Origin: Tetrahymena thermophila SB210
Lineage: Eukaryota > Ciliophora > Oligohymenophorea > Hymenostomatida > Tetrahymenidae
Direction of reading: 5' to 3'
Length of the DNA: 64,000 nucleotides
Assembly: GCF_000189635.1 (NCBI RefSeq)
Contig: NW_002476364.1
Span: 615,972-679,971 of the forward strand
The translations under genes and the position numbers were made by a program. Of this stretch, positions 10,901 to 64,000 are shown piece by piece (within the stretch, counting starts at the first letter, position 1; every line of letters begins with the position of its first letter). The notes below the pieces were generated by a model. The model was not told the DNA's origin. It searched no databases and saw only the letters and a program-made list of their open reading frames with translations.

Positions 10901-11408
10901 TTTATTTGATTAAAAAATGAATTTTTAGATGGCTTTTATTACTTTAAGTCTAATTTTCTTTTTTAAAGATCAAATAAACTATTGTATTTTTTAATTTCGA
11001 ATAATTTCTGCTTGTTAAGTTTTTAACCAAAATTTTCAATATTAGTTTATTATTTTACTTCCATAAAAATTAATTTTCTTATTTACTTATATCATACACT
11101 TTATGAATTAGTAATTAATCCAAAAATTATTATAAATAGCATAAAAAATTATTTTATTTTTGAGAAGATAAAATAATAAATAAATTTGAATTGAAAAGTT
11201 ACTATTTTTATTTTTGTCAGATTACTTTTTTCTGATTAATTTTGATTAATTATATAAACTATATATTCAATTAATTATATTTAATCAGAAAATAATATGG
11301 GCTTGCACAAAATAAAGCTTAATTTAAATAGAAAGAATTTTGAATTTTAAAATAAAAAATATTAAACTAAAATATAAAATAACAAAAAAAACATTAAAAT
11401 TAAAAAAA
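7951..11408. other. Long AT-rich intergenic region
   Basis: About 3.4 kb without a convincing coding frame on either strand. Its only structure is an imperfect 450 bp tandem duplication at about 9168-10075, listed separately, and the flank of the first small secreted-protein gene. Confidence 0.6.
9168..10075. repeat. Imperfect tandem duplication, about 450-470 bp unit
   Basis: Copy 1 (about 9168-9600) and copy 2 (about 9619-10075) share in order: an AGAATTTTTTATGA block, a TGTAATTGAT block, AACTTCAAAAACTAAA, GACCCAA plus TTGGTTTGT, TTTATCAGAATTTTTATAAA, and ATCATAAAGAATACATTT. The offset grows from 451 to 469 bp through small indels. The repeated AAGTGTAAT word also occurs upstream of the second and third paralogues downstream (12624, 14774). 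Confidence 0.75.
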
Positions 11409-11747
11409 ATGAGATTTATTGCTGTTTGCTTATTTGCCTTAGTTGCCTTAAGCTCTGTATATGCTGATGATATCGAAAAGATGAAATGTTTGGGTCAAGT
11501 TCCTAAACCTTGTGGTGATGGTTCAGATTCTGCCTGTTTAACCGCTTACAACACTGATGGCAACTGTGTTAATAGAGATTGTGCTGCTAAACTCATCGAC
11601 TTGAACGACTACGCTACTTGCATCAAGAAATGCAAATCTAATAACGATAAAGTTTAAAAATGGATTGATGCTAATGTTAGTTGTGTTGGAAGTGGTTTAT
11701 TAAGCTTTGCTGCTTTAATGATTGCTTTTGTTGCTTTCATGTTCTGA
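11409..11747 (+). CDS. Small secreted cysteine-rich protein, GPI-anchor-like, copy 1
   Basis: 112 residues; ATG 11409 and TGA 11745-11747. Visible parts: an N-terminal signal peptide (residues 1-19, ending SSVYA), a mature domain with eight cysteines at 27, 35, 43, 53, 58, 71, 75 and 92, and a hydrophobic C-terminal tail (residues 97-112) with no charged residue after it, preceded by small residues (GSG at 94-96). That architecture is typical of a GPI-anchored surface protein. The TAA at residue 83 is read as Gln, so standard-code calls stop 30 residues early and wrongly start at a TTG upstream. I recognise no named family. It is one of three tandem, nearly identical genes. An AAATTAAAAAAAATG-like context precedes each start. 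Confidence 0.9.
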
Positions 11748-13806: not shown

Positions 13807-15689
13807 GCTATTAAATTTTATTAAAAAATATTTTTAAATTAAATATTTGGATGTTTTTTATATGTCTTGATGTATTTAGTTTATTAATTTCACTTTTATT
13901 ATTTCAATAGAGATTTTAGTTATTATTTTTCTCATAAGATAAAATATATTTATTATTAATAATAATCTATTCAAAGAATTTTTACTTAAATACTATAAAA
14001 TAGATTAATTTTATTCTTGATATTCTATTGAATACATTTATTTCACAAGCTTTATTATTTTATTGTTAATTTATGAAAAATTATAATTATATAATAGTGA
14101 TTTAAACCAAATTCGAATATGCAAATAAAAGGAAAAAATATGAAATGATTCTATTAAGTCAACAAAAAGCTCAATAGTAACTAAAAAAGACAAAATAAAA
14201 TAAATGAAAAAACTATATTATAAATTAAATTAATATCACAAATATGCTTATTAGTTTAATTTTAAAAAGGCTCATAATAAATTTATTAGGTTCAATGTTT
14301 TTTACTTTTTAAATCATAAAAATATGTTTCAATTTATCATTTAATCCAATTTTTTGAATAATAAGTTTATTTTTTTTCAATCTTAAATTTCATCTATTTT
14401 AGACAATCTTATAGATAATTATATCTAGTGAAACTTGTTAAATGAACTATGATATACTTTTAATTATTAATAAGATAATAATATGTTAAAAAAGAGTAAA
14501 TCCCTTCTTTAATAATATAAAAAAAATGAAAGATAATCATTTGATTAAATTGTTATTGGGAATTTTTGTATTGGATTTGTTTATTTATTTCTTTGAGAAA
14601 TAAAAGAATAAACTTAATTTTATCAAATGTTTATTTTAGTCAAAAAATTAAAAATGGTTGCTTTGCAGAAATCTATGATTATTTATGATTAACATAATTA
14701 CTCAGAATATTTAATAAATAAAATACCTATCAAATCTACTATTTTTTCTATCATCTCTTATTTCGTAATAATTAAGAAAAGTGTAATAAATTGAAATCAA
14801 AAAAATTATAAAATTGTGACGTATTACTTTTATTTAATATGAACTGTAAACTTATATCAGAAATAGAGTTTTTATTTACTTAAAGCCAAATTCAACTAAT
14901 TTTGGTAACCATAAATGAATTTTTTTATTTTGAATAAAAATATTAATAAGTCAATTAACAAAATCATTTTTAAATCTAAATTCCCTAAATTATTAATGCC
15001 TCATGATAAAAATATGCTTCTATGATGTAAGCTATTAATTTTGTTCAGTTTAGATTTGTATACAGTTATTTATATGTATATATTGCTGTACCTTGAAAAT
15101 ATATTATTTTCTATCACTGCCTTATACAATTTAAAGAATATTAATTTCAAAAAAAAAAGGAAGGAAGGAAGGAAGGAAGGAAGGAAGAAAAATTCTAGTA
15201 ATTATTCAATTTCGACTATGCTAATTAACAAAAAGTTACAAAATTCGAAAATTAATTAATTAAATTTTAAAGTTCAGAGAGTTACAATTTTTAGATCTAA
15301 ATCTTTTTACATAATTAAATAAAAATTATTGAATTTCGAATAATATTTATTAATTAAATTTTACTCACTAATTTTAGTGTAACTTATTTTAGAGCTAAAA
15401 AGCTTTTATCCAAGAAATTCAAAAAATAATAGACATTTTTTTCAAATCTAAAATACCAAAAGCAGATTAAATTTTCTAGAACTTAAGTTCTATTTTATTT
15501 TATTATTATGAGTCATATTTGATAAATTTTAATTAATTGTAAAAGCTGATTGATTAATATTTTTGAATGAAATTAATAAAGAATATTACAAAAGCAAACC
15601 TCACTTTAAATATAGAGCCATTTGAATTTTTAAAATTTTATAAATGTTAAATAAATAAAAATAAATAAATAAAATCAACATAAAAAAAA
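13807..15689. other. Spacer between secreted-protein copies 2 and 3
   Basis: AT-rich. It holds the shared 3' block after copy 2, an AAGTGTAAT word at 14774, the GGAA microsatellite at 15159-15186 and the GAGAGTTACAATTTTTAG block near 15280. The frame at 15041-15259 is low-complexity and not a gene. Confidence 0.6.
15159..15186. repeat. (GGAA)7 microsatellite
   Basis: Seven perfect copies of GGAA in the spacer upstream of secreted-protein copy 3. It follows a run of about ten A. Confidence 0.95.
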
Positions 15690-16028
15690 ATGAAATTCAT
15701 CTCTGTTTGCTTGCTTGCTTTAGTTGCCTTAAGTTTTGTATATGCTGATGATATCGAAAAGATGAAATGTTTGGGTCAAGTTCCTAAACCTTGTGGTGAT
15801 GGTTCAGATTCTGCCTGTTTAACTGCTTACAACACTGATGGAAACTGTGTTAATAGAGATTGTGCTGCTAAACTCATCGACTTGAACGACTATGCCACTT
15901 GCATCAAGAAATGCAAATCTAATAACGATAAAGTTTAAAAATGGATTGATGCTAATGTTAGTTGTGTTGGAAGTGGTTTATTAAGCTTTGCTGCTTTAAT
16001 GATTGCCTTATTTGCTTTCATGTTCTGA
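15690..16028 (+). CDS. Small secreted cysteine-rich protein, GPI-anchor-like, copy 3
   Basis: 112 residues. The mature part is identical to copy 1 apart from the C-terminal tail, which has LF like copy 2. The signal peptide differs more (MKFISVCLLALVALSFVYA). It ends at TGA 16026-16028 and starts 2222 bp after copy 2. The signal peptide has drifted while the cysteine domain has not, which suggests that the mature domain is what selection or conversion preserves. The product probably sits on the cell surface through a lipid anchor. Confidence 0.9.
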
Positions 16029-22224: not shown

Positions 22225-23737
22225 AGTAGGTAGTATTGAATAATAACAATAATATTCAAACTAATATTAATCTTATAAATTACTTAATCAAAATTTAACT
22301 ATAACCTTAAATACAAATCAAATTGTATAAATTAATTACATATTTTCATTAATCCATATCAAATCATGGCTAACAGTAAATTTTTATAGACTAATTATTT
22401 AAAAAACAAAATATTTAACTTATAAATACTTCATATAGAAAATTATTTATATTTTTAATTTTATTATTCTAACTAAGTAGGTGCTTTTCTCTAAATATTT
22501 TACAAATTCTAACAATAATAAGCATTACAATCAAAAATTGTAAATATTTTTATAAGATAATGCAAAATATTGAATGAAATTTACTTAAGAAACAATAACA
22601 TTCAAACTAATATTTATCTTATAAGTTACTTAATCAATATTTAACTATAACCTTAAATACAAATCAAGTTGTATAATAAATTAATTACATATTTTCATTT
22701 ATCCATATCATATAAAATTAGGATTAACAGTAAAATTTTAAAGACTAAAAGTAAGTACTTTTCTCTAAATATATTACTAATTCTAACAACAATAAACTTT
22801 AGTACAATAATTTTTGTAAAAATTTTTACAACATAATTCAAAATATTAAATAAAATTTTTTCAAGAATGATGTAGTTAGTATTTTCATTTTAAAAATATT
22901 GGTTAAAAATATTTTGGTTATTCGAATTAAAAATATTGATCTTTATTTAAAACTAAAAAAAATTATAGATTCTTAATAATTATTTTCTGTAGTAGGAAAT
23001 AAATATTTAGTAGAATAATAAATATTATTTAAAAAATTTAATTTAAAATTTTAGTACTTTAATTACTAGAATTTTTTCAAGATATAATTACCCCTCTCTA
23101 ACTAATTCCTACTATATTTTTAAGTATGTGTTTTAAATAGAAATATTAAGATTTAATAATGTATATTGTGCTAATTTTTTTTGAGATACTTCTTCCGAAA
23201 AGTAAATTTATCAATACAAATTTGATAATTATAAAATATTTGTTATTTTTTAAAAAATAATATGAAATGAAAGTAAATTAATTTTTTAATAAATCAATAA
23301 TTTATTACGTTTTCATAAATTGTTTTTCAATTTTTTTGAGAAAAAAAAATAAATGATTTAAGAGAAAAAATATTTTAACAATCTAGAAGAAGTAAATATT
23401 AATTTTTTATTAATATACTTTAAATTTATTTTTATTTATAAAAAAAGTTTTTAAACTCTTCTCTTTAATTTCATTAGATTATTCATATTGCTCTAAAAAG
23501 GTATATTTAATTTATTCCTATTATTATTATTATTATAATGTTTTTTTATATTTAATATTCAAGTTAATTACAATATTAACTTTCTAATAGAAATTCTCAT
23601 TAATTATCATTCATTTTTTGAAACAAATATTTTTTTAATTATTTAACATAATTTTCTTCAATTTTTATTTTAATTATTAATTATTCATTTTTTCTTTCTA
23701 ACTATTATAATTCATTTTTTCTTCAATATTTAAAAAG
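22225..23737. other. Divergent upstream region with tandem duplication
   Basis: Lies between the minus-strand coiled-coil gene and the plus-strand LRR gene. The first half holds a duplicated segment, listed separately. The second half must contain the 5' exon or exons of the LRR gene, since the first visible LRR exon has no in-frame ATG. I could not identify a start exon with the required phase. Confidence 0.5.
22238..22860. repeat. Imperfect tandem duplication, about 345 bp unit
   Basis: The segment about 22238-22560 recurs at about 22590-22860. Shared blocks include AACAATAA, TATTCAAACTAATATT, AACTATAACCTTAAATACAA, AATTACATATTTTCATT and TCTCTAAATAT. It lies directly upstream of the coiled-coil gene, so it may duplicate promoter elements. 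Confidence 0.8.
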
Positions 23738-26700
23738 TGACAATTATAGCGGTGATGAATATGCATCGCTCTTAGGTTCTGCTTTAGCAAATTGTATTAA
23801 TCTCTAAAATTTGACACTTGATTTTGGGTAAAAATTGCTTATTTGTTTTGGATAATTAAATCATTTAAAAAAAAAAAAAATTTAAAACAATAAAGCTAAC
23901 TTTTTTAATTTATTTATTAACTTATTATTTGATTTATTTTTCTCTTTTTTTATTCTACTTGTGTTTTTTTTTTCTTTGTTTCTTTGTTAATTTAACTCAT
24001 TTTTTATTTTCAACTCTTTCTTTTATTATTGATTTATTTTTTTCTTATTATTTATTATTTTTTCTTTATTTTTTCCTTATATCTAACTAATTAATTATAT
24101 ATTTTTTCTTAAATATTTAAAAAGGTACAATAAAATTGGTGCAAATAGTGCACTAGGATTAGGTTCTGCTTTAACAAATTGTACTAATCTCTCAAATTTG
24201 ACACTTAAACTTTAGTAAAAACAGTTTATTAGTTTTGGATTGTGACACTTAAAAAAAAATTAATTTAAAACATTATTACTCTATTAATTTATTTATTTAT
24301 TTATTAGCTTTTTAATTAATTTATTTGTTTTTATTTTTATTCTCTTAATTTAACTCATTTTTTCATTTTAAATTCTTTCTTTTACTATTGATTAAGAGTT
24401 TTCATTTTATTTCATAATTCTTCTTCATTTTTTCCTTATAACTATCTAACTAATTAATTCTATATTTTTCTTGAATATTAAAAAGTTAAAATTAAATTGG
24501 TGCAATTGGTACATCAGGCTTAGGTTCCGCTTTATCAAATTACGTTAATATCTCAAATTTGACACTTGAACTTTAGTAAAAACAGTTTATTAGTTTTGGA
24601 TTGCGACTTTATTTATTAGCTTTTTTTTTAACTTATTTTTCTTTTTTTTTATTCTACTTTTGTTTTTTTATAATATTTATTTTGCTTATTTTAATCATTT
24701 ATTTTTTTATTTTCAACTTTTGATTTTATTATTAATTTATTAATTTCTTATTATTACATATTTTTTCTTCTTTTATTCCTTTATTCCTAACTAATTGATT
24801 ATATATTCTTTCTACAATAATTAAAAAGATGCAATTAAGTTGGAGCAATAGGTGCATTTGACTTAGGCTCTGCTATAGCAAATTGCACTAATCTCTCAAA
24901 TTTAAAACTTGATCTTAGGTAAATCCAGTTTATTTGTTTTGGATAGTGATATTTTAAAATTAAAAATTAATTTAAAACAAAATAACTAACTCTTTTAATT
25001 AATTAATTTATTATAAATTTATTTGATTTATTTTTCTTTATTTATTATTATGTGTTTTTTTTCTTTTCTTACTGCTAATTTAACTCATTCATTTTTTAAT
25101 TTTAAACTTTTGCTTATTATTTCATATTTTTTTTATAACGAAATAACTAATTAATTATAAATTTTTTCTTCTATAATTAAAAAGTTAAAATTAAATTGGT
25201 GACGAAGGTGTATCAGGCTTAGTTTCTGCTTTATCAAATTGCACTAATCTCTCAAATTTCACACTTGGACTTTAGTAAAAACAATTTTTTACTTTTGGAT
25301 TATGAGATTTAAAAAAAAAATAATTTAAAACATGAAAACTCTATTAATTAATTTATTTATTAGATTTTTTAAATCATTTATTTATTTTTTCTTTTCTTTT
25401 TTTTACATTTATTTTTTTCTTTTATTATATGCTAATTTAACTCAATTTTTTACTTTCAACTCTTGTTTTTATTATTAATTATTTCGCTTCTCATTATTTC
25501 ATATTTTTTCTTCTTTTATTCCTTTTAGTTAGCTGATTGGTTATACATTTTTTTCAATATTTAAAAAGTTAAAATTAAATTGGTGCAATCGGTGCATCAT
25601 CCTTAGGTACTAGTTTATCAAACTGCACTAATCTCTCAAATTTGATACTTTATCTTGAGTAAAAACAGTTCATTTGTTTTGGATAGTGATATTTTTTAAT
25701 ATAAAAATAAATTTAAAACAATAAAACTAATTTTAATTTATTTATTTATTTATTTATTAGAAATTTATTATATTTATTTTTCTTTTTTCTTATCTTACTT
25801 TGTTAATTTAACTCATTTTTTTTTTCATTTTCAACTTTTGCTTTTATTATTTATTTATTACATCACATTTTCAATTTATAATAATAATTATTTATTTTTT
25901 CTTCAATATTTAAAAAGTTAAAATTAAATTAGTGACGAAGGTGTATCAGCCTTAAGTTCTGGTTTAGCAAATTGCACTAATCTCTCCAATTTGGAACTTT
26001 GTATTAGGTAAAAATAATTTATTTGTTTTGGATTATGGCATTTTTTACAAAATAATGATTAAAAAAAATAAAATTCTTGTAATTGATTTTTTTTATTTTA
26101 CTTGTGTCTTTATTTCTTAATTTTTAATTTATCTTATTTTACATTTTCAATATTGCTTTTACCCTAAATTAATTTCTTATTATTTGATATTTTTTCCTTA
26201 AATTAACTAGTTTATTATATGTTTTTTCATCAATTTTTAAAAAGTTTAAATTAAATTGGTTCAATAGGCGCATCACGCTTAGGCTCTTATTTAGCATATT
26301 GCTACAATCTATCGAATTTGACTCTTGAACTTTAGTAAAAACAGTTTATTTATTTTGGATAATATTTTTTATATGAAAATGAATTTAAAACTATATAATT
26401 GATTTATTTGTCTTTTTCTTTATTCTGCATTTTAATTTTTTTTACATTTTTTATTTAACTAATTTTTTTATTTTCAACTTTTATTATTATTAATAAATTA
26501 ATTTCTTATTATTCCATATTTTTCTTCATTTTTTACTAAAAACTAACTAACTGATTAATATTTTTTCTTCAATATTTAAAAAGATACAATTAGATTGGTG
26601 CAATTGGTGCATCAGGCTTAGGATTTGCTTTAGCAAATTGCACTGATCTCTCAAATTTATCACTTTATCTTAAGTAAAGATAGTTTATTTGTATTAGATT

Positions 26701-28089
26701 GTTATATTTTTTATTATAAAAATGAAATAAAACAATATTATTCTATTTATTTTTTTTTAATAGCTATTTTTTATTTTGCTTATTTTTTTTATTCTACTTG
26801 TGTTTTTTTTTCTTTCTTAATTAATGAAACTCATTTATTCATTACAAACATTTTCTTTTATTATTAATTAATTTATTATTATTTCATATTTTTCCTTCAA
26901 ATAATGATTTATTATAAATTTTTTCTTCAATATTTAAAAAGTTAAAATTTAATTTGTGATGAAGGTACATCGAACTTAGGTTCTGCTTTAGCAAATTTTA
27001 CTAATCTCTCAAATTTAACACTTGAACTTTAGTAAAAATAGTTTATTTGCTTTACATTATGAAAATTTTTAATTCAAAAATTAATTCAAAAAAATATGAT
27101 TCTTTTAATTTATTTATTAGCTTTTTATTTGGTTTATTTTTCTTTTTTTATTCTTCTGATTGTATTTTTTTCTTCTTCTTCTTCTTTATTTTTTAATTTA
27201 AATAATTTATTTATTTTCTTTTTGTTTTAATTATTAATTAATTTATTTATTATTTCATATTTTTTTTCACTTCTCCTTATGACTAACCAATCGATTTTTA
27301 TATTTTTCTTCAATAATTAAATAGACATAATTAAATTGGCTCACTTGGAGCATCAGGCTTAGGTTCTGCTTTAGCAAATTGTATTAATCTCTCAAATTTG
27401 AGACTTTATCTTGGGTAAAAATTGTTTATTTGTTTGGGATAGTGATATAACTCATTTATTCATTTTCAACTTTTGGTTTTATTTTTAATTAATTCATTTC
27501 TTATTAATTGATTTTTTTTCTTCATTTTATCATTCTAACTTATGATTTATGATAAATTTTTTCTCCAATACTTAAAAAGTTTAAATTAAATTTGTGATGA
27601 AGGTACATCAAGCTTAGGTTCTGCTTTGGCAAATTGCATTAATCTCTCAAATTTGGCACTTGAACTTTAGTAAAAACAGTTTATTTGTTTTGGTTAGTGA
27701 TATTTTTAATATAAAAAATAATTTAAAATAATATAACTAACTATGCAATTTGATTTATTAGCTTTTTTTAAATTCTAATTGTGTTATTTTTTCTTACTTT
27801 GCTAATTTAGCTCATAATTTTCATTTTAAACTTTTGTTAATTCATTTCTTATGATTTCATATTTTTTCTTCAATATTTATAAAGACACAATTAAATTAGT
27901 GCCTTTGGTGCATCAAGCTTAGGTTCTGCTTTAAAAAATTGCACTAATCTTTCAGATTTGAAACTTCATCTTAGGTAAAAGCAGTTTGTTTATTTTGGAT
28001 AGTGATATTTTTTAATATTAAATGAATGTAATTATTGAAAACTCATTTTATTGATTTATTAGATTTTTATTTGATTTATTTTAATTTTT

Positions 28090-28165
<76 letters not shown>

Positions 28166-29067
28166 TGTTAATTTAACTCCTTCATTATTTAATTTTCAAC
28201 TTTTTATTTTATTTTTAATTAATTTCTTCTTTTTTAATTTTTTTTCTTCATTTTTTCCTGATTACTAATTAATTGATTTTATATTTTTTCTTCATTATTT
28301 AAATAGCTAAAATTATATTGGTGATAAAGGTACATCAAGCTTAGGTTCTGGTTTAGCAAATTGCACTAACCTCTCAAATTTAACACTTGAACTTTAGTAA
28401 AAATAGTTTATTTTTTTTTGGATAGTGATACTTTTTAATATATAAATGAATTTAAAACAATATAACTAACTCTATTAATTTTTTTATTAGCTTTTTATTT
28501 GCTTAATTCTTTTTTTATTCTGCTTAAGTTTTTTTCTTCTTCTTACTTTTTTAATTTAACTCATTTATTAATTATCAACTTTTGGCTTAATTTTAATTTG
28601 TTAATTTCTTATAAATTCATATTTTAACTTCACATTTTCCTTATAACTAACTAACTAACTAGTTAATAATATATTTTTTCTTCAACATTTAAAAAGATAC
28701 AATTAAATTAGTGAAATTGGTTTATCAAGCTTAGCTTCTGCTTTAGTAAATTGCAATAATCTCTCAAATTTGAAACTTTATCTTAGGTAAAAACAGCTTA
28801 TTGTTTTTGATAGTGATATTTTTTAATATAAAAATGAATTTAAAACAATATATAATTCTATTAATTAATTTATTAGCTCTTTATTGATTTATTTTTCTTT
28901 TTTTTTATTTTGTTATTGCTATTGTTTTTTTATTTTATTTGTTTATTTATTTATTAATTTAATAGATCATTTTTAATTTAATAATTTTAATCTATTTACT
29001 TTTTTTTAGTAATTTACATTAATTTATACTAAAAGTAAAAGCGAAATCAAGAAATCATAAAAATTGA
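23738..29067 (+). CDS. Leucine-rich-repeat protein with one-exon-per-repeat array (5' end missing)
   Basis: Fifteen consecutive exons, each exactly 90 nt: 23738, 24125, 24486, 24829, 25185, 25569, 25918, 26245, 26584, 26942, 27325, 27580, 27885, 28307 and 28697 (starts). A last exon (29010-29067) follows, with TGA at 29065-29067. All introns start GTAAA, end AG (usually in TTTAAAAAG) and sit after the second base of a codon, so each exon is one symmetric 30-residue unit. The repeat reads roughly N-Q-I-G-A-x-G-A-S-G-L-G-S-A-L-A-N-C-T-N-L-S-N-L-T-L-x-L, the RNI-like LRR type common in Tetrahymena. No TGA interrupts any exon. Exon ends alternate between a TA class and an AG/GA/AA/GG class from the third to the fifteenth exon, which implies amplification as two-exon pairs. 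Introns (165-332 nt) are also similar to each other. No start exon was found. Such proteins often carry another domain upstream; none is visible. Function is probably protein binding. Confidence 0.8.
28088..28166. repeat. (TTTC)n microsatellite in an LRR intron
   Basis: About 19 perfect copies of TTTC within the pyrimidine-rich part of the intron between LRR exons 13 and 14. It explains why that intron is the longest (332 nt). The frame across it is not a gene. Confidence 0.95.
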
Positions 29068-30320
29068 AATTAGAAAGCAAGTGTCTTAAATTAAATAGAT
29101 TAGTTGTCTTTAGAATATATTTATAATGATAATAAAAAGAATTTAAAAAACTATCACTAAAAATAAAAATATTTGGATAATAGAATATACTGTAAATGCT
29201 CGTTAATTTAGGCATATTTTAATTAAGGCATTTTTTTCTTAAATTTTGTTTTTAAATTTGTTAAAAATCCATTATTTTTTATGCAAGAGATACTTTATTC
29301 TAACTATCTGTAATTTTTAAAAAATGAAAAATAATAACTTTCAAACAAAATTGTATTTTTAATTTCTTCTTCTACTCTAAACAAATTTCTAATCAAAAAT
29401 TAAATTTTAAATTAAAAATGCCTATAATTTCTTTTATATATTTAATGGATATATTTAAGCTTCTAGCAGCTATTTTCTTGTTTTAATAAGTTAAATAAGT
29501 TAATCATAGAATTTAAAAAAGAATAAAAAGTTTATATTACTTTTAAAGTTAAAACTATTATTATTTTTATTATTCTATTCAAATAATCTTTAAAATTTAT
29601 TTGATAACTAGCTTTGAGTTTTTTTTATTTATTTTCTTTATCTTATTAATAAATAAAATAGTTTGATTATTTAGTTTCTATCTTTCTTAATAAATAATTT
29701 CGATCCTTTTTAATAAATATTTTTGATAATTTCTAATAGATAGTTTCGATCCTTACTAATAAATATTTTTGATCATTTCTAACTTTTATAAATAGTTTCG
29801 ATCCTCTTTATAAAAATTTTAATATTTCTATATAAATAGTTTCGAACCTTGATTTTTAATAATAAATATCTTCTAAATATATAGTTTAGGTTATCATTAT
29901 TAAAATTTTTTATCTTTATTAGTGAATAATTTAAATCCTTCTTTGTTAAGTTAAAATTTTATAAATAGCTTATACTTAATTCCATTATATTTTCGATTAA
30001 TTAGAATGAATTCTTTCTAATTTTCCTAATAAGAAGCTTCTATTTCTTTTTTGGTTTGATCATATTTAATAAGATTTAGTTTTTTTAATAATTAATTTAA
30101 TAAAAACTTTAAATGTTATTTCCCAGTTTTTTTTTTAACTCAATATGATTTATAGTTTCGATCTTATTTGATGGTTATAATAATATTTAATAAATAGTTT
30201 CGATCCTGTTCATATTTCGAATATTTTAAAAGCTACAAAACTTATAAAATTATTAATTTTTAAATACAAAAAAGAAGCTAAAAAACTATCTGCAAATTAT
30301 ATACATTTTTAATTTGTATT
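29068..30320. other. Spacer with iterated TAGTTTCGATCCT motif
   Basis: AT-rich spacer between the LRR gene and a membrane-protein gene. The only pattern is the dispersed TTTCGATCC word, listed separately. The minus-strand frame at 29024-29215 is low-complexity and partly overlaps the LRR 3' exon. Confidence 0.6.
29693..30210. repeat. Six dispersed copies of an AATAGTTTCGATCCT motif
   Basis: Copies start near 29693, 29740, 29791, 29835, 30151 and 30193. The first four are spaced by 44-51 bp and contain a near-invariant TTTCGA. In an AT-rich spacer the repeated CG and GATC stand out. The array ends about 110 bp before the next start codon. It may be a decayed minisatellite or an iterated binding site. 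Confidence 0.7.
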
Positions 30321-54123: not shown

Positions 54124-56025
54124 TCAACTCAATTTTACTTTTTAAGATTAATTTAGTTCCTACTTTACCTTTAAAATTTCATCTCTGCATGATTCAAGTT
54201 AATAAAGGTCATAGCATAACTAATAATAGTTGATTGATTTGTTATAATCTTATAGAGTAGTATCTAATTAATAAAATAAACCCAGGTACAATAAGCAATA
54301 TGCATTATTGGGCGAATTATTTAAACACTAATCCATAATTTAGATTGCTTCATTATATTTGAATTGGTGTTAATAGTAATTAGCCAAGTGCACATAACAG
54401 AAACCTTAACTTTTTGTTTTATGAAAGCACATATTAATGTAATTTCTTGAATCAGATAGAGGTTATTTTGAGTAAAAAATAGTTAAAATACTTTCATTTA
54501 AATGCATCTTTAAAATAGAATCTGCAACTCCAGTACTACAAATATATCCTACTTTCTCTGAATCTAAGCATCCTTTAAAAAAATGGTATTACGCAATATA
54601 AAAACCTTAAAGATCATCATGCACTTAAGCATAGCAAGCTTCAATTTATTGACTACAAGCTTAAATTGAAGCATGGGCTGTTAAGAAGGCTAGTAAATTG
54701 GCCATGATTATTAAAATGGCATCATAGAAAATCACTATTAAAATTACAATTAATCTAAACGAGAGACGACTTTTTTTAACTTCCTTAGAGTTATATGTAA
54801 ATTCATGGCATAGATTTATAAAAGGATTGCCTTTCTCAATGCACACTTCAATTAGTTTATCTTTTTATAATTATTCTTAAGTTGATTTAAATCGATAAAC
54901 TTCTAATAAACTATCTTAGCAAATTTAATTTTCTTTACCTTCTTATAAACACTTTTTGTAAGCTTAAGCTGAATCGTCATATTTCTAAATACTTTTATAA
55001 AAATCGCCAACAGCTTAGTAATATTGTTGATCTTTAGGATGTTGCTCAATACAAAGAAGTAATAAATCAATAGCAGCTTTAGGCTTTTCTTTCATATTCT
55101 AAGCACTTTTAAATAACTTTTTTGCTAATTGGCATCCATCCCAAATATCTGATTTTACTTTTTTTATACCTTTTAGGATGTCTTTAAGTAGAGGAGGACT
55201 TTAATTTTTGCTTTCAAAAATAGTCAAAAAAGTAGAAATAAGCTGTTCATCTAAATTATCGACAAGAAGTTCTCTATTAAATCTATCAACTAAATTAGCT
55301 CCTCCGAGTTGGTATATTACTTAAATTGAGGCTAATACATCAATTTATTTCAACTTTGTCTTATCTACTTTCAAAATATTCTATGTCACGTCAATCTCAT
55401 TTTCACTTATCTACTAATTTACATTGTAAAGCAATGATATCTTATTCTTTTAATTTTATATTTGCAGACTTTAAACTCTTCTAAAAATATTTGCGTTAAA
55501 ATATCCATTGCAAACAACCTTTAATTAATTGTTTTTATCTATCATTATTGTTGATAAATCAATATCCCTTGCTTCTTTTTTTTTAGAATGAATATGTTCC
55601 AAAGCTTAAAAGAGCTAATCACTAAAGCTTATAATTTATGGGAGAAATAATTGATTTGTTTGTCTACTTCTTAACCACTACTCTAAGCTAGATTCATACC
55701 TCTCTGTGACTATCAAAAAATAGTAACCTATTTCAAAGTAGTCAACGACTTTAAGTACATTTTTATGATTAAATGTTTTCATAACTTTTACTTCCTGCTA
55801 TGCATTTTAATAAATAGTTTTATCTATGTTATTAACTCCGTCAAACATGTTTATGATTTTCAAGTTATACTCATTGTTTTTATCATCTGAAACTACTGCC
55901 CTGGATATATATGATTGATCATACAAAGTCATCTATAAAGTTTTATACCTTTATTCATGATACAATTTTTCTGCTAAATCTTTTATTTAAAAAAACTCTC
56001 TTTCTCTATTTTTATTTGAACTCAT
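54124..56025 (-). CDS. Pseudokinase-TPR membrane protein, copy 1
   Basis: A single exon of 633 residues; ATG 56025, TGA 54124-54126. Residues 30-250 follow a protein-kinase plan: K56 in NEYNLKII (VAIK lysine), E78 in the alpha-C helix, and a hinge near LIVTERYESSLEQWL. The catalytic loop is A-R-D-I-D-L-S-T (152-159) instead of HRDxKxxN, and the DFG position reads CNG (172-174). Essential catalytic residues are therefore missing and it is a probable pseudokinase. Residues 290-400 have TPR-like pairs (KAAIDLLLLCIEQHPKDQQY, then YDDSAQAYKKCLQEGKENQI). A hydrophobic segment follows (LIVILIVIFYDAILIIMANLL). C-terminal TPR-like helices include YNEAIQIMDQCLNNSPNNAY. No glycine-rich loop is clear. 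It has a near-identical neighbour in tandem. The role is unknown; scaffolding at a membrane is my inference. Confidence 0.75.
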
Positions 56026-56875
56026 ATTTATTTCTTTGTATGTTTGTTTTTATGTTTAGATTTAATAAACACTTAATCTATTTTTTTGTATAAATTCAAT
56101 CAAGTATTTTTTAAAACAATCTAAATTCACTATATTTCAACATTTGGATATTCATTATTAAGAGATGAGTAGATATTCATAATTAATAATTATAATAATT
56201 CATATTAGCTAAATCCATCCATTTATTTGATAAAAAATATCTAACAAAAATAAAAATTTCATAAGGATTTTTTAATCCAAATTATTTTATTTTTTAAAGA
56301 AATGCTAATAAAAATAACATATTTTTGTGTTTAATAAATTCTAAATAAATAAAAACAATTTTTAGAAGCATTAAATTAAAAATGATAAATATTTTCTATT
56401 GATTGATAATAGAAAAAATATTAAAATCAAATAAATAACTTTTAAAGATAAAAATAATTTCAGGATAAAATATTTATGATAAAAGATATAAAATATATTT
56501 TTTTAATGACAATTTTTAAAAAAGCAAGCATAGTAAAAATTAAAATTTGCATAAAATTTTAAATGAACAAATGAGTAAATAATTAAATAAATAAAAATCT
56601 ATAAAAAATTTTAATATATATACATTAATAAATATCAATTATATATATACTTAGTAATTTTTAATTTTATACATTGTAATGCTATATAAATATATAATTT
56701 ATTTTATTATCATATTTATTAAATATTAGGATATTCAAGGTCCATATTATTAGAAAATAAAATCTTTTTTGTTGAGATTTATTTAATGAGAACATATAAT
56801 AGATAGATAGCTTAAAAAATAAATTTTAATGATAATTAAATTTTTTATTTTAATTTAAAATTGAATTAAAAATAT
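56026..56875. other. Spacer between the two pseudokinase copies
   Basis: 5' flank of copy 1 and 3' flank of copy 2. It contains the junction of the tandem duplication at about 56746. The plus-strand frame at 55911-56093 is antisense to the copy 1 start. Confidence 0.7.
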
Positions 56876-58810
56876 TCAACTCAATTTTACTTTTTAAGAT
56901 TAATTTAGTTCCTATTTTACTTTTTAAGGTTAATTTAGTTGCTATTTTACCTTTAAAATCTCATCTCTGCATGATTCAAGTTAATAAAGATCATAGCATA
57001 ACTAATAATAGTTGATTGATTTGTTATAATCTTATAGAGTAGTATCTAATTAATAAAATAAACCCAGGTACATTAAGCAATATGCATTATTGGGCAAAGA
57101 TTTTAAACACTTATCCATAATTTAGATTGCTTCATTATATTTGAATTGGTGTTAATAGTAATTAGCCAAGTGCACATAACAGAAACCTTAACTTTTTGAT
57201 GTTTTATGAAAGCACTATTGAATGTAAATTCTTGAATCATATAGAGGTTATTTTGAGTAAAAAATAATTGAAACACAATCATTTAAATACATCTTTAAAA
57301 TAGAATCTGCAACTCCAGTACTACAAATATATCCTACTTTCTCTGAATCTAAACATCCTTTAAAAAAATGGTATTACGCAATATAAAAACCTTAAAGATC
57401 ATCATGCACTTAAGCATAGCAAGCTTCAATTTATTGACTACAAGCTTAAATTGAAGCATGGGCTGATATGAAGGCTAGTAAATTGGCCATGATTACTAAA
57501 ATGACATCTTTGAAAATCACTATTAAAATTACAATTAATTTAAACGAGATACGACTTTTTTTAACTTCCTTAGAGTTATATGTAAATTCATGACATAGAT
57601 TTATAAAAGGATTGCCTTTCTCAATGCACACTTCAATTAGTTTATCTTTTTATAATTATTCTTAAGTTGATTTAAATTGATAAACTTCTAATAAACTATC
57701 TTAGCAAATTTAATTTTCTTTACCTTCTTATAAACACTTTTTGTAAGCTTAAGCCGAATCGTCATATTTCTAAATACTTTTATAAAAATCGCCAACAGCT
57801 TAGTAATATTGTGGATCTTTAGGATGTTGCTCAATACAAAGAAGTAATAGATCAATAGCAGCTTAAGGCTTTTCTTTCATATTCTAAGCACTTTTAAATA
57901 ACTTTTTTGCGAATTGGCATCCATCCCAAATATCTGATTTTACTTTTTTTATACTTTTTAGGATATCTTTAAGTAGAGGAGGATTTTAATTTTTGCTTTC
58001 AAAAATAGTCAAAAAAGTAGAAATAAGCTGTTCATCTAAATTATCAACAAGAAGTTCTCTATTAAATCTATCAACTAAATTAGCTCCTCCGAGTTGGTAT
58101 ATTACTTAAATTGAGGCTAATACATCAATTTATTTCAACTTTGTCTTATCTACTTTCAAAATATTCTATGTCATGTCAATCTCATTTTCACTTATCTGCT
58201 AATTTACATTGTAAAGCAATGATATCTTATTCTTTTAATTTTATATTTGCAGACTTTAAACTCTTCTAAAAATATTTGCGTTAAAATATCCATTGCAAAC
58301 AACCTTTAATTAATTGTTTTTATCTATCATTATTGTTGATAAATCAATATCCCTTGCTTCTTTTTTTTTAGAATGAATATGTTCCAAAGCTTAAAAGAGC
58401 TAATCACTAAAGCTTATAATTTATGGGAGAAATAATTGATTTGTTTGTCTACTTCTTAACCACTACTCTAAGCTAGATTCATACCTCTCTGTGACTATTA
58501 AAAAATAGTAACCTATTTCAAAGTAGTCAACGACTTTAAGTACATTTTTATGATTAAATGTTTTCATAACTTTTACTTCCTGCTATGCATTTTAATAAAT
58601 AGTTTTATCTATGTTATTAACTCCGTCAAACATGTTTATGATTTTCAAGTTATACTCATTGTTTTTATCATCTGAAACTACTGCCCTGGATATATATGAT
58701 TGATCATACAAAATCATCTATAAAGTTTTATACCTTTATTCATGATACAATTTTTCTGCTAAATCTTTTATTTAAAAAAACTCTCTTTCTCTATTTTTAT
58801 TTGATCTCAT
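56876..58810 (-). CDS. Pseudokinase-TPR membrane protein, copy 2
   Basis: A single exon of 644 residues; ATG 58810, TGA 56876-56878. It has the same layout as copy 1, including the A-R-D catalytic loop and CNG in place of DFG, so the kinase core was already inactive before the duplication. It is 11 residues longer than copy 1. One codon is gained near residue 570, and ten codons come from a 30 bp direct repeat at about 56885-56945, which duplicates a K-Q-E-L-N-Q-x-Q-K-V unit at the C-terminus. The transmembrane region differs by a handful of residues (FKDVILVIMANLLAFISAH). Both copies keep an intact frame, so both may be expressed. Confidence 0.75.
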
Positions 58811-58904
58811 ATTTATTTCTTTGTATGTTTGTTTTTATGTTTAGATTTAATAAACACTTAATCTATTTTTTTGTATAAATTCAATAAAGTATTTTTTAAA
58901 ACAA

Positions 58905-59068
58905 TCTAAATTCACTATATTTCAACATTTGGAGATTCATTATGACGAGATAAGTAGATATTCGTAATTAATAATTATAATCAATGAAATTCACTATATT
59001 TCAACATTTGGATATTCATTATTAAGAGATGAGTAGATATTCATAATTAATAATTATAATAATTCATA
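58905..59068. repeat. Direct repeat, about 80 bp unit
   Basis: AATTCACTATATTTCAACAT and the following 60 bp, including GTAGATATTC and TAATTAATAATTATAAT, occur twice in tandem. The first copy carries a GACGAG variant, the second AAGAGATGAG. Unit 1 of the large duplication has a single copy (about 56125-56200). Confidence 0.85.
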
Positions 59069-63927: not shown

Positions 63928-64000
63928 GGGGTTGGGGTTGGGGTTGGGGTTGGGGTTGGGGTTGGGGTTGGGGTTGGGGTTGGGGTTGGGGTTGGGGTTG
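63928..64000 (+). repeat. Macronuclear telomere, (GGGGTT)12
   Basis: Twelve perfect GGGGTT repeats plus one G run to the window end. This is the G-rich 3' strand of a Tetrahymena-type telomere, so the window's right edge is a real chromosome end made by developmental chromosome breakage and telomerase addition. Confidence 0.99.

What the first reader, a model, noticed from the sequence alone, without database searches (positions are those of the whole stretch)
23738..29067. Fifteen consecutive 90 nt exons, one leucine-rich repeat each
Every exon of the array is exactly 90 nt, every intron has the same phase (after codon position 2), and introns share 3' ends and internal blocks. Each exon is thus a symmetric module that can be gained, lost or skipped without frame change. 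Exon skipping or unequal exchange could generate repeat-number variants, a modular recognition-protein design. The introns (165-332 nt) are several times longer than the 47-106 nt typical of most other introns in this window.
Basis: partly seen in the sequence, partly recalled or inferred. Interest (0 to 1): 0.85.

Follow-up and report, generated by a model that had tools for sequence, protein, structure and literature searches.

The report
Tetrahymena gene built from 90-base exons
This is one complete member of a large, already published family of Tetrahymena genes in which every leucine-rich repeat sits on its own 90-base exon; the added detail is that the residues expected to touch a target vary strongly from repeat to repeat and are cut by the introns.

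Summary
In detail: 15 consecutive 90-nt exons, phase-2 introns of 165-332 nt, one leucine-rich repeat (LRR) each. Two leader exons (23353-23391 with ATG, 23478-23500) precede the array and a terminal exon (29010-29067, TGA) follows: 489 aa with TAA/TAG read as Gln. The genome is Tetrahymena thermophila and the window ends in a macronuclear telomere. The architecture is already known: Xiong et al. 2019 (PMC6564038) describe thousands of such LRR genes, group III introns peaking near 257 bp; here the median is 267. What I add is site-resolved: in 31 arrays (201 exons) the four putative concave-face codons, one of them split by the intron, diverge between repeats at dN/dS 3.6 (bootstrap 2.97-4.45), against 0.30 at structural codons; two loop codons are as variable (3.2). 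This supports, but does not prove, a diversifying recognition surface made by germline exon shuffling. Exon skipping in mRNA is not shown. Two published anomalies (frame-preserving bias of skipped exons; 279-bp introns at cassette exons) would fit if these exons are the skipped ones; that link is untested and could be a read-mapping artefact.

The parts
23353..23391 (+). leader exon 1 (ATG; 13 codons, MIQEKKYFNNLEE); intron after it is phase 0
   Evidence: the nine paralogous upstream regions aligned keep the ATG and a 33- or 39-nt exon (seven by regex, L028 and L029 read from the alignment)
23392..23477 (+). intron 1, 86 nt, phase 0
23478..23500 (+). leader exon 2 (23 nt), ends in phase 2
   Evidence: in the ten aligned sequences its length is 17, 20, 23 or 26 nt, always 2 modulo 3 (L026, L028 and L029 read from the alignment)
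23738..23827 (+). 90-nt LRR exon 1
24125..24214 (+). 90-nt LRR exon 2
24486..24575 (+). 90-nt LRR exon 3
24829..24918 (+). 90-nt LRR exon 4
25185..25274 (+). 90-nt LRR exon 5
25569..25658 (+). 90-nt LRR exon 6
25918..26007 (+). 90-nt LRR exon 7
26245..26334 (+). 90-nt LRR exon 8
26584..26673 (+). 90-nt LRR exon 9
26942..27031 (+). 90-nt LRR exon 10
27325..27414 (+). 90-nt LRR exon 11
27580..27669 (+). 90-nt LRR exon 12
27885..27974 (+). 90-nt LRR exon 13
28307..28396 (+). 90-nt LRR exon 14
28697..28786 (+). 90-nt LRR exon 15
29010..29067 (+). terminal exon (18 codons after the junction codon, then TGA); the least certain exon
   Evidence: of 14 aligned 3' ends including this one, 8 keep the acceptor AG and 3 stop at the same codon
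23010..23352 (+). upstream region shared with other family members (likely promoter/5' module; left border approximate)
   Evidence: 42 other places listed at 70-79% identity with matches beginning at query bases 400-581 (only the best 40 candidates are scored, so a lower bound); alignment
63928..64000 (+). macronuclear telomere, 12 GGGGTT repeats, at the window's right end

Best explanation
A complete T. thermophila group III '90-bp exon' LRR gene. Each exon encodes one 30-residue, ribonuclease-inhibitor-like LRR. The phase-2 intron cuts the concave beta strand at its hypervariable x7 codon, so the left half of a binding strand (x3, x5, part of x7) comes from one exon and the right half (part of x7, x8) from the next. 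Unequal exchange within the long, mutually similar introns in the germline adds, removes and recombines units without frame change; selection keeps the leucine scaffold and diversifies exposed positions. The most likely product is a soluble solenoid that binds variable partners (food bacteria, their products, or other ligands). Shown: anatomy, copy number, conservation pattern, site-class divergence. Inferred: concave-face assignment (by motif register, no structure made), recombination in introns (from the literature and intron similarity), recognition function.
For: Exact 90-nt phase-2 exons and a complete frame. Leader exons conserved in paralogs. T. thermophila identity: 132 of 132 residues of a TERT stretch equal PDB 6d6v_A (the organism of that entry is recalled). 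An exon-core pattern has 3081 matches in the genome with up to 3 mismatches and 0 for the reversed control. LRR_6 E 2e-19. dN/dS at codons 26, 28, junction and 1 = 3.61 (95% 2.97-4.45) over 31 arrays and 3.38 in this gene; structural codons 0.30 and 0.19; 30 of 31 arrays have pN at these codons above overall pS. Neutral yardsticks in this gene are lower: introns 0.247 after gapped alignment, fourfold sites 0.18, against pN 0.52 at the concave codons. Pairs that share the amino acid at codons 26, 28 or 1 differ synonymously at 0.159, little above 0.119 at other codons, so these codons are not simply hypermutable. Published family.
Against: No transcript, protein or ligand evidence. Xiong et al. 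report Ka/Ks below 1 (median about 0.4 for the most species-restricted LRR genes). Local pS is also high at the variable codons (0.535 at codon 1, 0.379 at 28), and their third bases differ nearly as often as the first two (0.382 vs 0.477 over 31 arrays; 0.419 vs 0.429 here), so with a local yardstick the ratio is near 1. Same-amino-acid pairs answer this only in part, being biased to recent copies, and very few in this gene. Ungapped intron flanks differ more than exons on average (0.318 and 0.300 vs 0.207), though misaligned by indels. Loop codons 6 and 7 (3.18) and, codons 9 and 11 (2.05) are also fast, so the excess is not confined to the concave strand. Nei-Gojobori counts are crude; the exon filter lowers the scaffold figure. 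The classes were fixed after seeing residue counts and changed once: codons 1, 3, 26, 28 gave 2.87 (2.35-3.51). Mutual information gives no independent sign of shuffling at introns.
Confidence: 0.82

Rival explanations
1. Exon skipping at the mRNA level is the main use of the architecture: long introns put these exons under exon definition, and whole LRRs are skipped to give isoforms of different repeat number, as in human NLRP3.
For: Symmetric exons in one phase. T. thermophila is named as the only non-animal with a frame-preserving bias akin to animals among skipped exons. Introns at its cassette exons average 279 bp, the longest class, with the determinants called unclear; group III LRR introns peak near 257 bp and here have median 267. 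Human NLR precedent: exon borders at the same place in the beta sheet across most NLRs, skipping shown for NLRP3.
Against: Only 139 cassette events against 832 intron retentions, and 25-33% of events of every type create premature stops; 'leucine' does not occur in that paper's main text and the section read of the other does not name LRR genes. Near-identical tandem exons can create false skipping calls in short-read mapping. Duplication and loss in the germline explain the symmetry without skipping.
Confidence: 0.2
2. Selfish or neutral expansion: the array grew by unequal crossing-over and REP retrotransposon activity, and the protein matters little.
For: Germline expansion near REP elements is published. 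Low expression of species-specific genes in axenic culture is reported (section heading only).
Against: All 15 exons are open, leader exons are conserved in frame, structural codons stand at dN/dS 0.19 in this gene. Xiong et al. state that many such genes are expressed.
Confidence: 0.08
3. The excess at exposed codons comes from mixing of old, distinct exon subfamilies by recombination or gene conversion, or from locally faster change, rather than from selection for diversity.
For: Exons of different genes are known to be scrambled; local pS and third-base differences are also high at these codons; exons two apart are more alike than neighbours in this array.
Against: Mixing alone should raise synonymous and intron differences alike, but overall pS 0.22 and introns 0.25 stay well below pN 0.52 at these codons; same-amino-acid pairs are only slightly more divergent there (0.159 vs 0.119); pN above overall pS in 30 of 31 arrays.
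Confidence: 0.2

Closest known systems
Tetrahymena group III 90-bp exon LRR genes (Xiong et al. 2019, PMC6564038; abstract, sections 9, 10, 11, 27, part 1 of 15 and part 2 of 20 read)
   Same: 90-bp exons in tandem, phase-2 introns, intron length near 257 bp, nucleotide-level repeats, species, very high copy number
   Different: Nothing in kind. In its main text the words concave, hypervariable, solvent, positive selection, alternative splicing and skip do not occur and 'alternat' has one unrelated hit; supplements were not searched
Human NLR (NLRP/NOD) LRR domains (PMC6642158; abstract and section 6 read)
   Same: One LRR per exon (most NOD/NLRC, 28 aa) or two (NLRP, 171 bp); frame-preserving; exon border at the same point of the beta sheet; RI-like repeats
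   Different: No NACHT or other domain found here; 30-residue repeat; very many genes; germline array change inferred rather than splicing
Lamprey/hagfish variable lymphocyte receptors (recalled; jawless-vertebrate LRR segments mentioned)
   Same: Diversity carried by LRR concave-face residues on modular segments
   Different: VLRs are assembled somatically from donor cassettes; nothing here shows somatic assembly
RI-like LRR chains in the PDB (five hits): an unnamed leucine-rich repeat protein (E 4.6e-13), Dynein regulatory complex subunit 5 (1.8e-8), an LRRP (8.3e-7), a 'Kinase domain protein' (1.4e-6), Radial spoke protein 15 (6.7e-6)
   Same: Same LRR class, aligned LxLxxNxIGDxG core
   Different: Weak sequence similarity; at least the dynein-complex and radial-spoke chains are fixed structural parts (from their names)

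Membership tests
Tetrahymena 90-bp exon LRR genes, group III | at least three consecutive exons of exactly 90 bp encoding LRR | tested here: met
   15 of 15
Tetrahymena 90-bp exon LRR genes, group III | phase-2 introns preceding the 90-bp exons | tested here: met
   15 of 15, including the intron after leader exon 2
Tetrahymena 90-bp exon LRR genes, group III | long introns, T. thermophila peak about 257 bp | tested here: met
   median 267, range 165-332
Tetrahymena 90-bp exon LRR genes, group III | repeat units recognisable at nucleotide level (CRS-masked) | tested here: met
   15 copies of a 267-nt unit, 64-77% identical to the reference copy; the CRS sequences themselves were not available
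Tetrahymena 90-bp exon LRR genes, group III | species: Tetrahymena | tested here: met
   TERT stretch 132 of 132 identical to PDB 6d6v_A (its organism is recalled)
Tetrahymena 90-bp exon LRR genes, group III | pericentromeric or subtelomeric micronuclear location; REP retrotransposon nearby in the micronucleus | not testable with these tools
   the assembly held appears macronuclear (telomere at the window's end)
RI-like LRR proteins | LRR_6 / LxLxxNxIgdxG repeats | tested here: met
   PF13516 E 2e-19; alignments
NLR immune receptors | NACHT/NB-ARC domain with LRR | tested here: not met
   only LRR families pass their cut-offs in the 489-aa protein
NLR-like regulation by LRR exon skipping | isoforms lacking whole LRR exons | not testable with these tools
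   no RNA data; literature indirect

The most novel reading that the evidence does not exclude
The 90-nt LRR exons with about 260-nt introns form an exon-definition enclave in an otherwise intron-definition genome, and their whole-exon skipping is the unrecognised source of two published oddities: T. thermophila as the only non-animal with an animal-like bias to frame-preserving skipped exons, and its unusually long introns at cassette exons. Each cell could then draw many receptor versions with a re-joined hypervariable strand at each skip, on top of germline shuffling and diversifying selection at the same strand.
Probability: 0.2. Interest if true: 0.75.

Novelty: already known. Interest (0 to 1): 0.33.

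Why it matters
The architecture is published, so the locus itself is ordinary for T. thermophila. The site-resolved result, if a codon model bears it out, would be a sequence-level sign in this gene family that the proteins are variable binders rather than structural filler. It makes the proposed recognition role testable: which residues to compare, and where skipping would re-join them.

Tried and rejected
Chance: rejected. Pseudogene or fragment: rejected, the frame is open from a conserved ATG to a TGA, although the terminal exon is weakly conserved (acceptor AG in 8 of 14, same stop in 3 of 14, where the junction letters of this gene were assumed for all).

Two-exon higher-order repeat: exons two apart are more alike than neighbours in this array (lag 2 0.794 vs lag 1 0.746; 0.0004-0.0008 of permutations reach it; protein 0.0038, introns 0.0072), but it is not general: of seven arrays tested only this one is below 0.01, two are near 0.08 and the exons of L040 go the other way (0.98). 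The broader even-versus-odd lag test in this array was not significant (0.158). I treat it as local duplication history.

Linkage by mutual information: codons 6-7 stand out (z 14.3), 1-6 weakly (z 2.7); the other nine pairs lie between z -1.5 and 1.4, both within exons and across introns.

Rows: L028 and L029 were in the wrong orientation and were turned; the regex there did not match them, so they were read from the alignment. For L026 the regex took an earlier AG (32 nt); the aligned boundary gives 23. Dropped for overlap before the 31-array count: L004, L023, L040; L009 and L024 (the window's own gene) were left out; stretches with fewer than four passing exons were not counted. The six regions were chosen because the exon pattern or the array's 3' part had matched there. 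No structure was predicted: the spliced protein is not contiguous in the DNA, so I did not submit it.

Full report
WHAT IS THERE. The window is a macronuclear chromosome end of Tetrahymena thermophila: it is G000:C173:615972-679971, it ends in 12 GGGGTT repeats from 63928, and a TERT stretch from the same genome is 132 of 132 residues identical to PDB 6d6v_A (that this entry is T. thermophila is recalled). With the ciliate code the region holds one gene: leader exons 23353-23391 and 23478-23500, fifteen 90-nt exons from 23738 to 28786, and a terminal exon 29010-29067 ending in TGA, 489 aa in all. Sixteen of 17 introns are phase 2, the first is phase 0. The 14 introns inside the array are 165-332 nt, median 267. 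The strict scan gives 14 full-score exons in the array (exon 1 scores 6 of 7), none elsewhere on either strand, and at most 1 in each of 200 resampled sequences.

THE ENDS OF THE GENE. About 0.7 kb upstream of the array matches 42 other listed places in the genome at 70-79% (a lower bound). In the ten sequences aligned (this one and nine others) the ATG and a first exon of 39 or 33 nt are kept, and the second exon is 17, 20, 23 or 26 nt, always 2 modulo 3 (three of the ten second exons and two of the first read by eye from the alignment). That is good evidence for coding and for the phase. The terminal exon is less sure: 8 of 14 aligned 3' ends keep the acceptor AG and 3 of 14 stop at the same codon.

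WHAT IS KNOWN. Xiong et al. 2019 (PMC6564038; abstract, sections 9, 10, 11, 27, part 1 of section 15 and part 2 of section 20 read) describe exactly this: thousands of LRR genes with tandem 90-bp exons, more than 98% phase-2 introns before them, 1-51 such exons per gene, and in T. thermophila 934 youngest (group III) genes with an intron peak near 257 bp. They explain them by unequal crossing-over and perhaps the REP retrotransposon in the germline nucleus. My own search finds 3081 matches to a 39-base exon core with up to 3 mismatches in this genome, and none for the reversed control; six further regions, chosen for such matches, all hold arrays of 8 to 18 recognised exons. The gene meets each of the five group III criteria that I tested. 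A search for Tetrahymena with 'LRR genes' from 2019 on lists only this paper.

WHAT IS ADDED. I compared the repeats within arrays, codon by codon. In 31 arrays (201 exons), codons that correspond to the exposed x3, x5, x7 and x8 of the LRR strand LxxLxLxxN (codons 26, 28, the junction codon and codon 1) differ at dN/dS 3.61 (bootstrap over arrays 2.97-4.45); structural codons give 0.30, the loop codons 6 and 7 give 3.18, the others 0.92. In this gene alone the figures are 3.38, 0.19, 3.32 and 0.92. In 30 of 31 arrays pN at the exposed codons exceeds overall pS. Introns of this gene differ by 0.247 after gapped alignment and fourfold sites by 0.18, against 0.52 for the exposed codons. The junction codon, which the intron splits, has the highest pN of the 30 (0.61 over all arrays; 0.67 in this gene, the ranking being over all arrays). 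So the exon border lies inside the putative binding strand, as in most human NLRs, where it sits at the same place in the beta sheet (PMC6642158, section 6). Xiong et al. report Ka/Ks below 1; the words concave, hypervariable, solvent, positive selection and alternative splicing do not occur in their main text. A search for papers with Tetrahymena, leucine-rich repeat, positive selection and exon gave two unrelated titles (listing only).

RESULTS AGAINST AND CAVEATS. Local pS is high at the variable codons too (0.535 at codon 1, 0.379 at codon 28), and their third bases differ nearly as often as their first two (0.382 vs 0.477 over 31 arrays, 0.419 vs 0.429 here); with a local yardstick the ratio would be near 1. 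A control run for this: pairs with the same amino acid at codons 26, 28 or 1 differ synonymously at 0.159, against 0.119 at other codons and 0.099 at structural ones, so these codons are at most mildly faster apart from amino-acid change; the control favours recent copies and has very few pairs in this gene. Ungapped intron flanks differ more than exons on average (0.318 and 0.300 vs 0.207), a figure raised by indels. The excess is not confined to the concave strand (codons 6, 7, 9 and 11 are fast). The counts are Nei-Gojobori, not a codon model; the exon filter favours hydrophobic scaffold residues; the classes were fixed after I had seen residue counts, and a first grouping (codons 1, 3, 26, 28) gave 2.87 (2.35-3.51). 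No structure was made, so the concave assignment rests on motif register and on alignments to RI-like LRR chains.

EXON SKIPPING. No RNA was available. The literature offers two facts that fit: T. thermophila is the only non-animal in one survey with an animal-like frame-preserving bias among skipped exons (PMC6142364, section 6), and introns at its 139 cassette-exon events average 279 bp, a length the authors leave unexplained (PMC3274533, section 9). The 90-nt exons with introns near 260 bp would explain both. Against this, intron retention is six times commoner and 25-33% of events of every type create premature stops, neither paper names LRR genes in what I read, and tandem near-identical exons invite false junctions from short reads. 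A search for Tetrahymena with leucine-rich repeat and exon skipping gave one Paramecium paper (listing only), so I found no one who has made the link within that library.

VERDICT. Observation confirmed; architecture already known; recognition reading strengthened by site-resolved divergence but not proven; skipping open.

Noticed in passing
window 29692-30207: A 16-base motif, AAATAGTTTCGATCCT, occurs five times (up to 1 mismatch) within about 520 bases just downstream of the gene, at spacings of 46, 52, 44 and 358; 0.12 matches (up to 2 mismatches) are expected in the whole window. Meaning unknown.
   Followed up: partly
window 54124-56136 and 56876-58921, - strand: Two neighbouring genes whose products look very similar by eye, each with a protein-kinase-like domain and a TPR match, 5-10 kb from the telomere.
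   Followed up: partly
window 11190-11747 and 15567-16028, + strand: Two open frames with closely similar short cysteine-rich proteins, each with a hydrophobic start and tail (list); look like a surface-antigen pair, by eye only.
   Followed up: no
window 22254-22394 vs 22600-22748: Local duplication of sequence upstream of the LRR gene, 87% identical.
   Followed up: no
G000:C268:26419-27632, C60:1389499-1390675, C148:175472-176742: The LRR-gene upstream module occurs as divergent, head-to-head pairs in these three places, suggesting shared bidirectional promoters.
   Followed up: no
window 28088-28167: A long TTTC microsatellite inside the intron after 90-nt exon 13.
   Followed up: no
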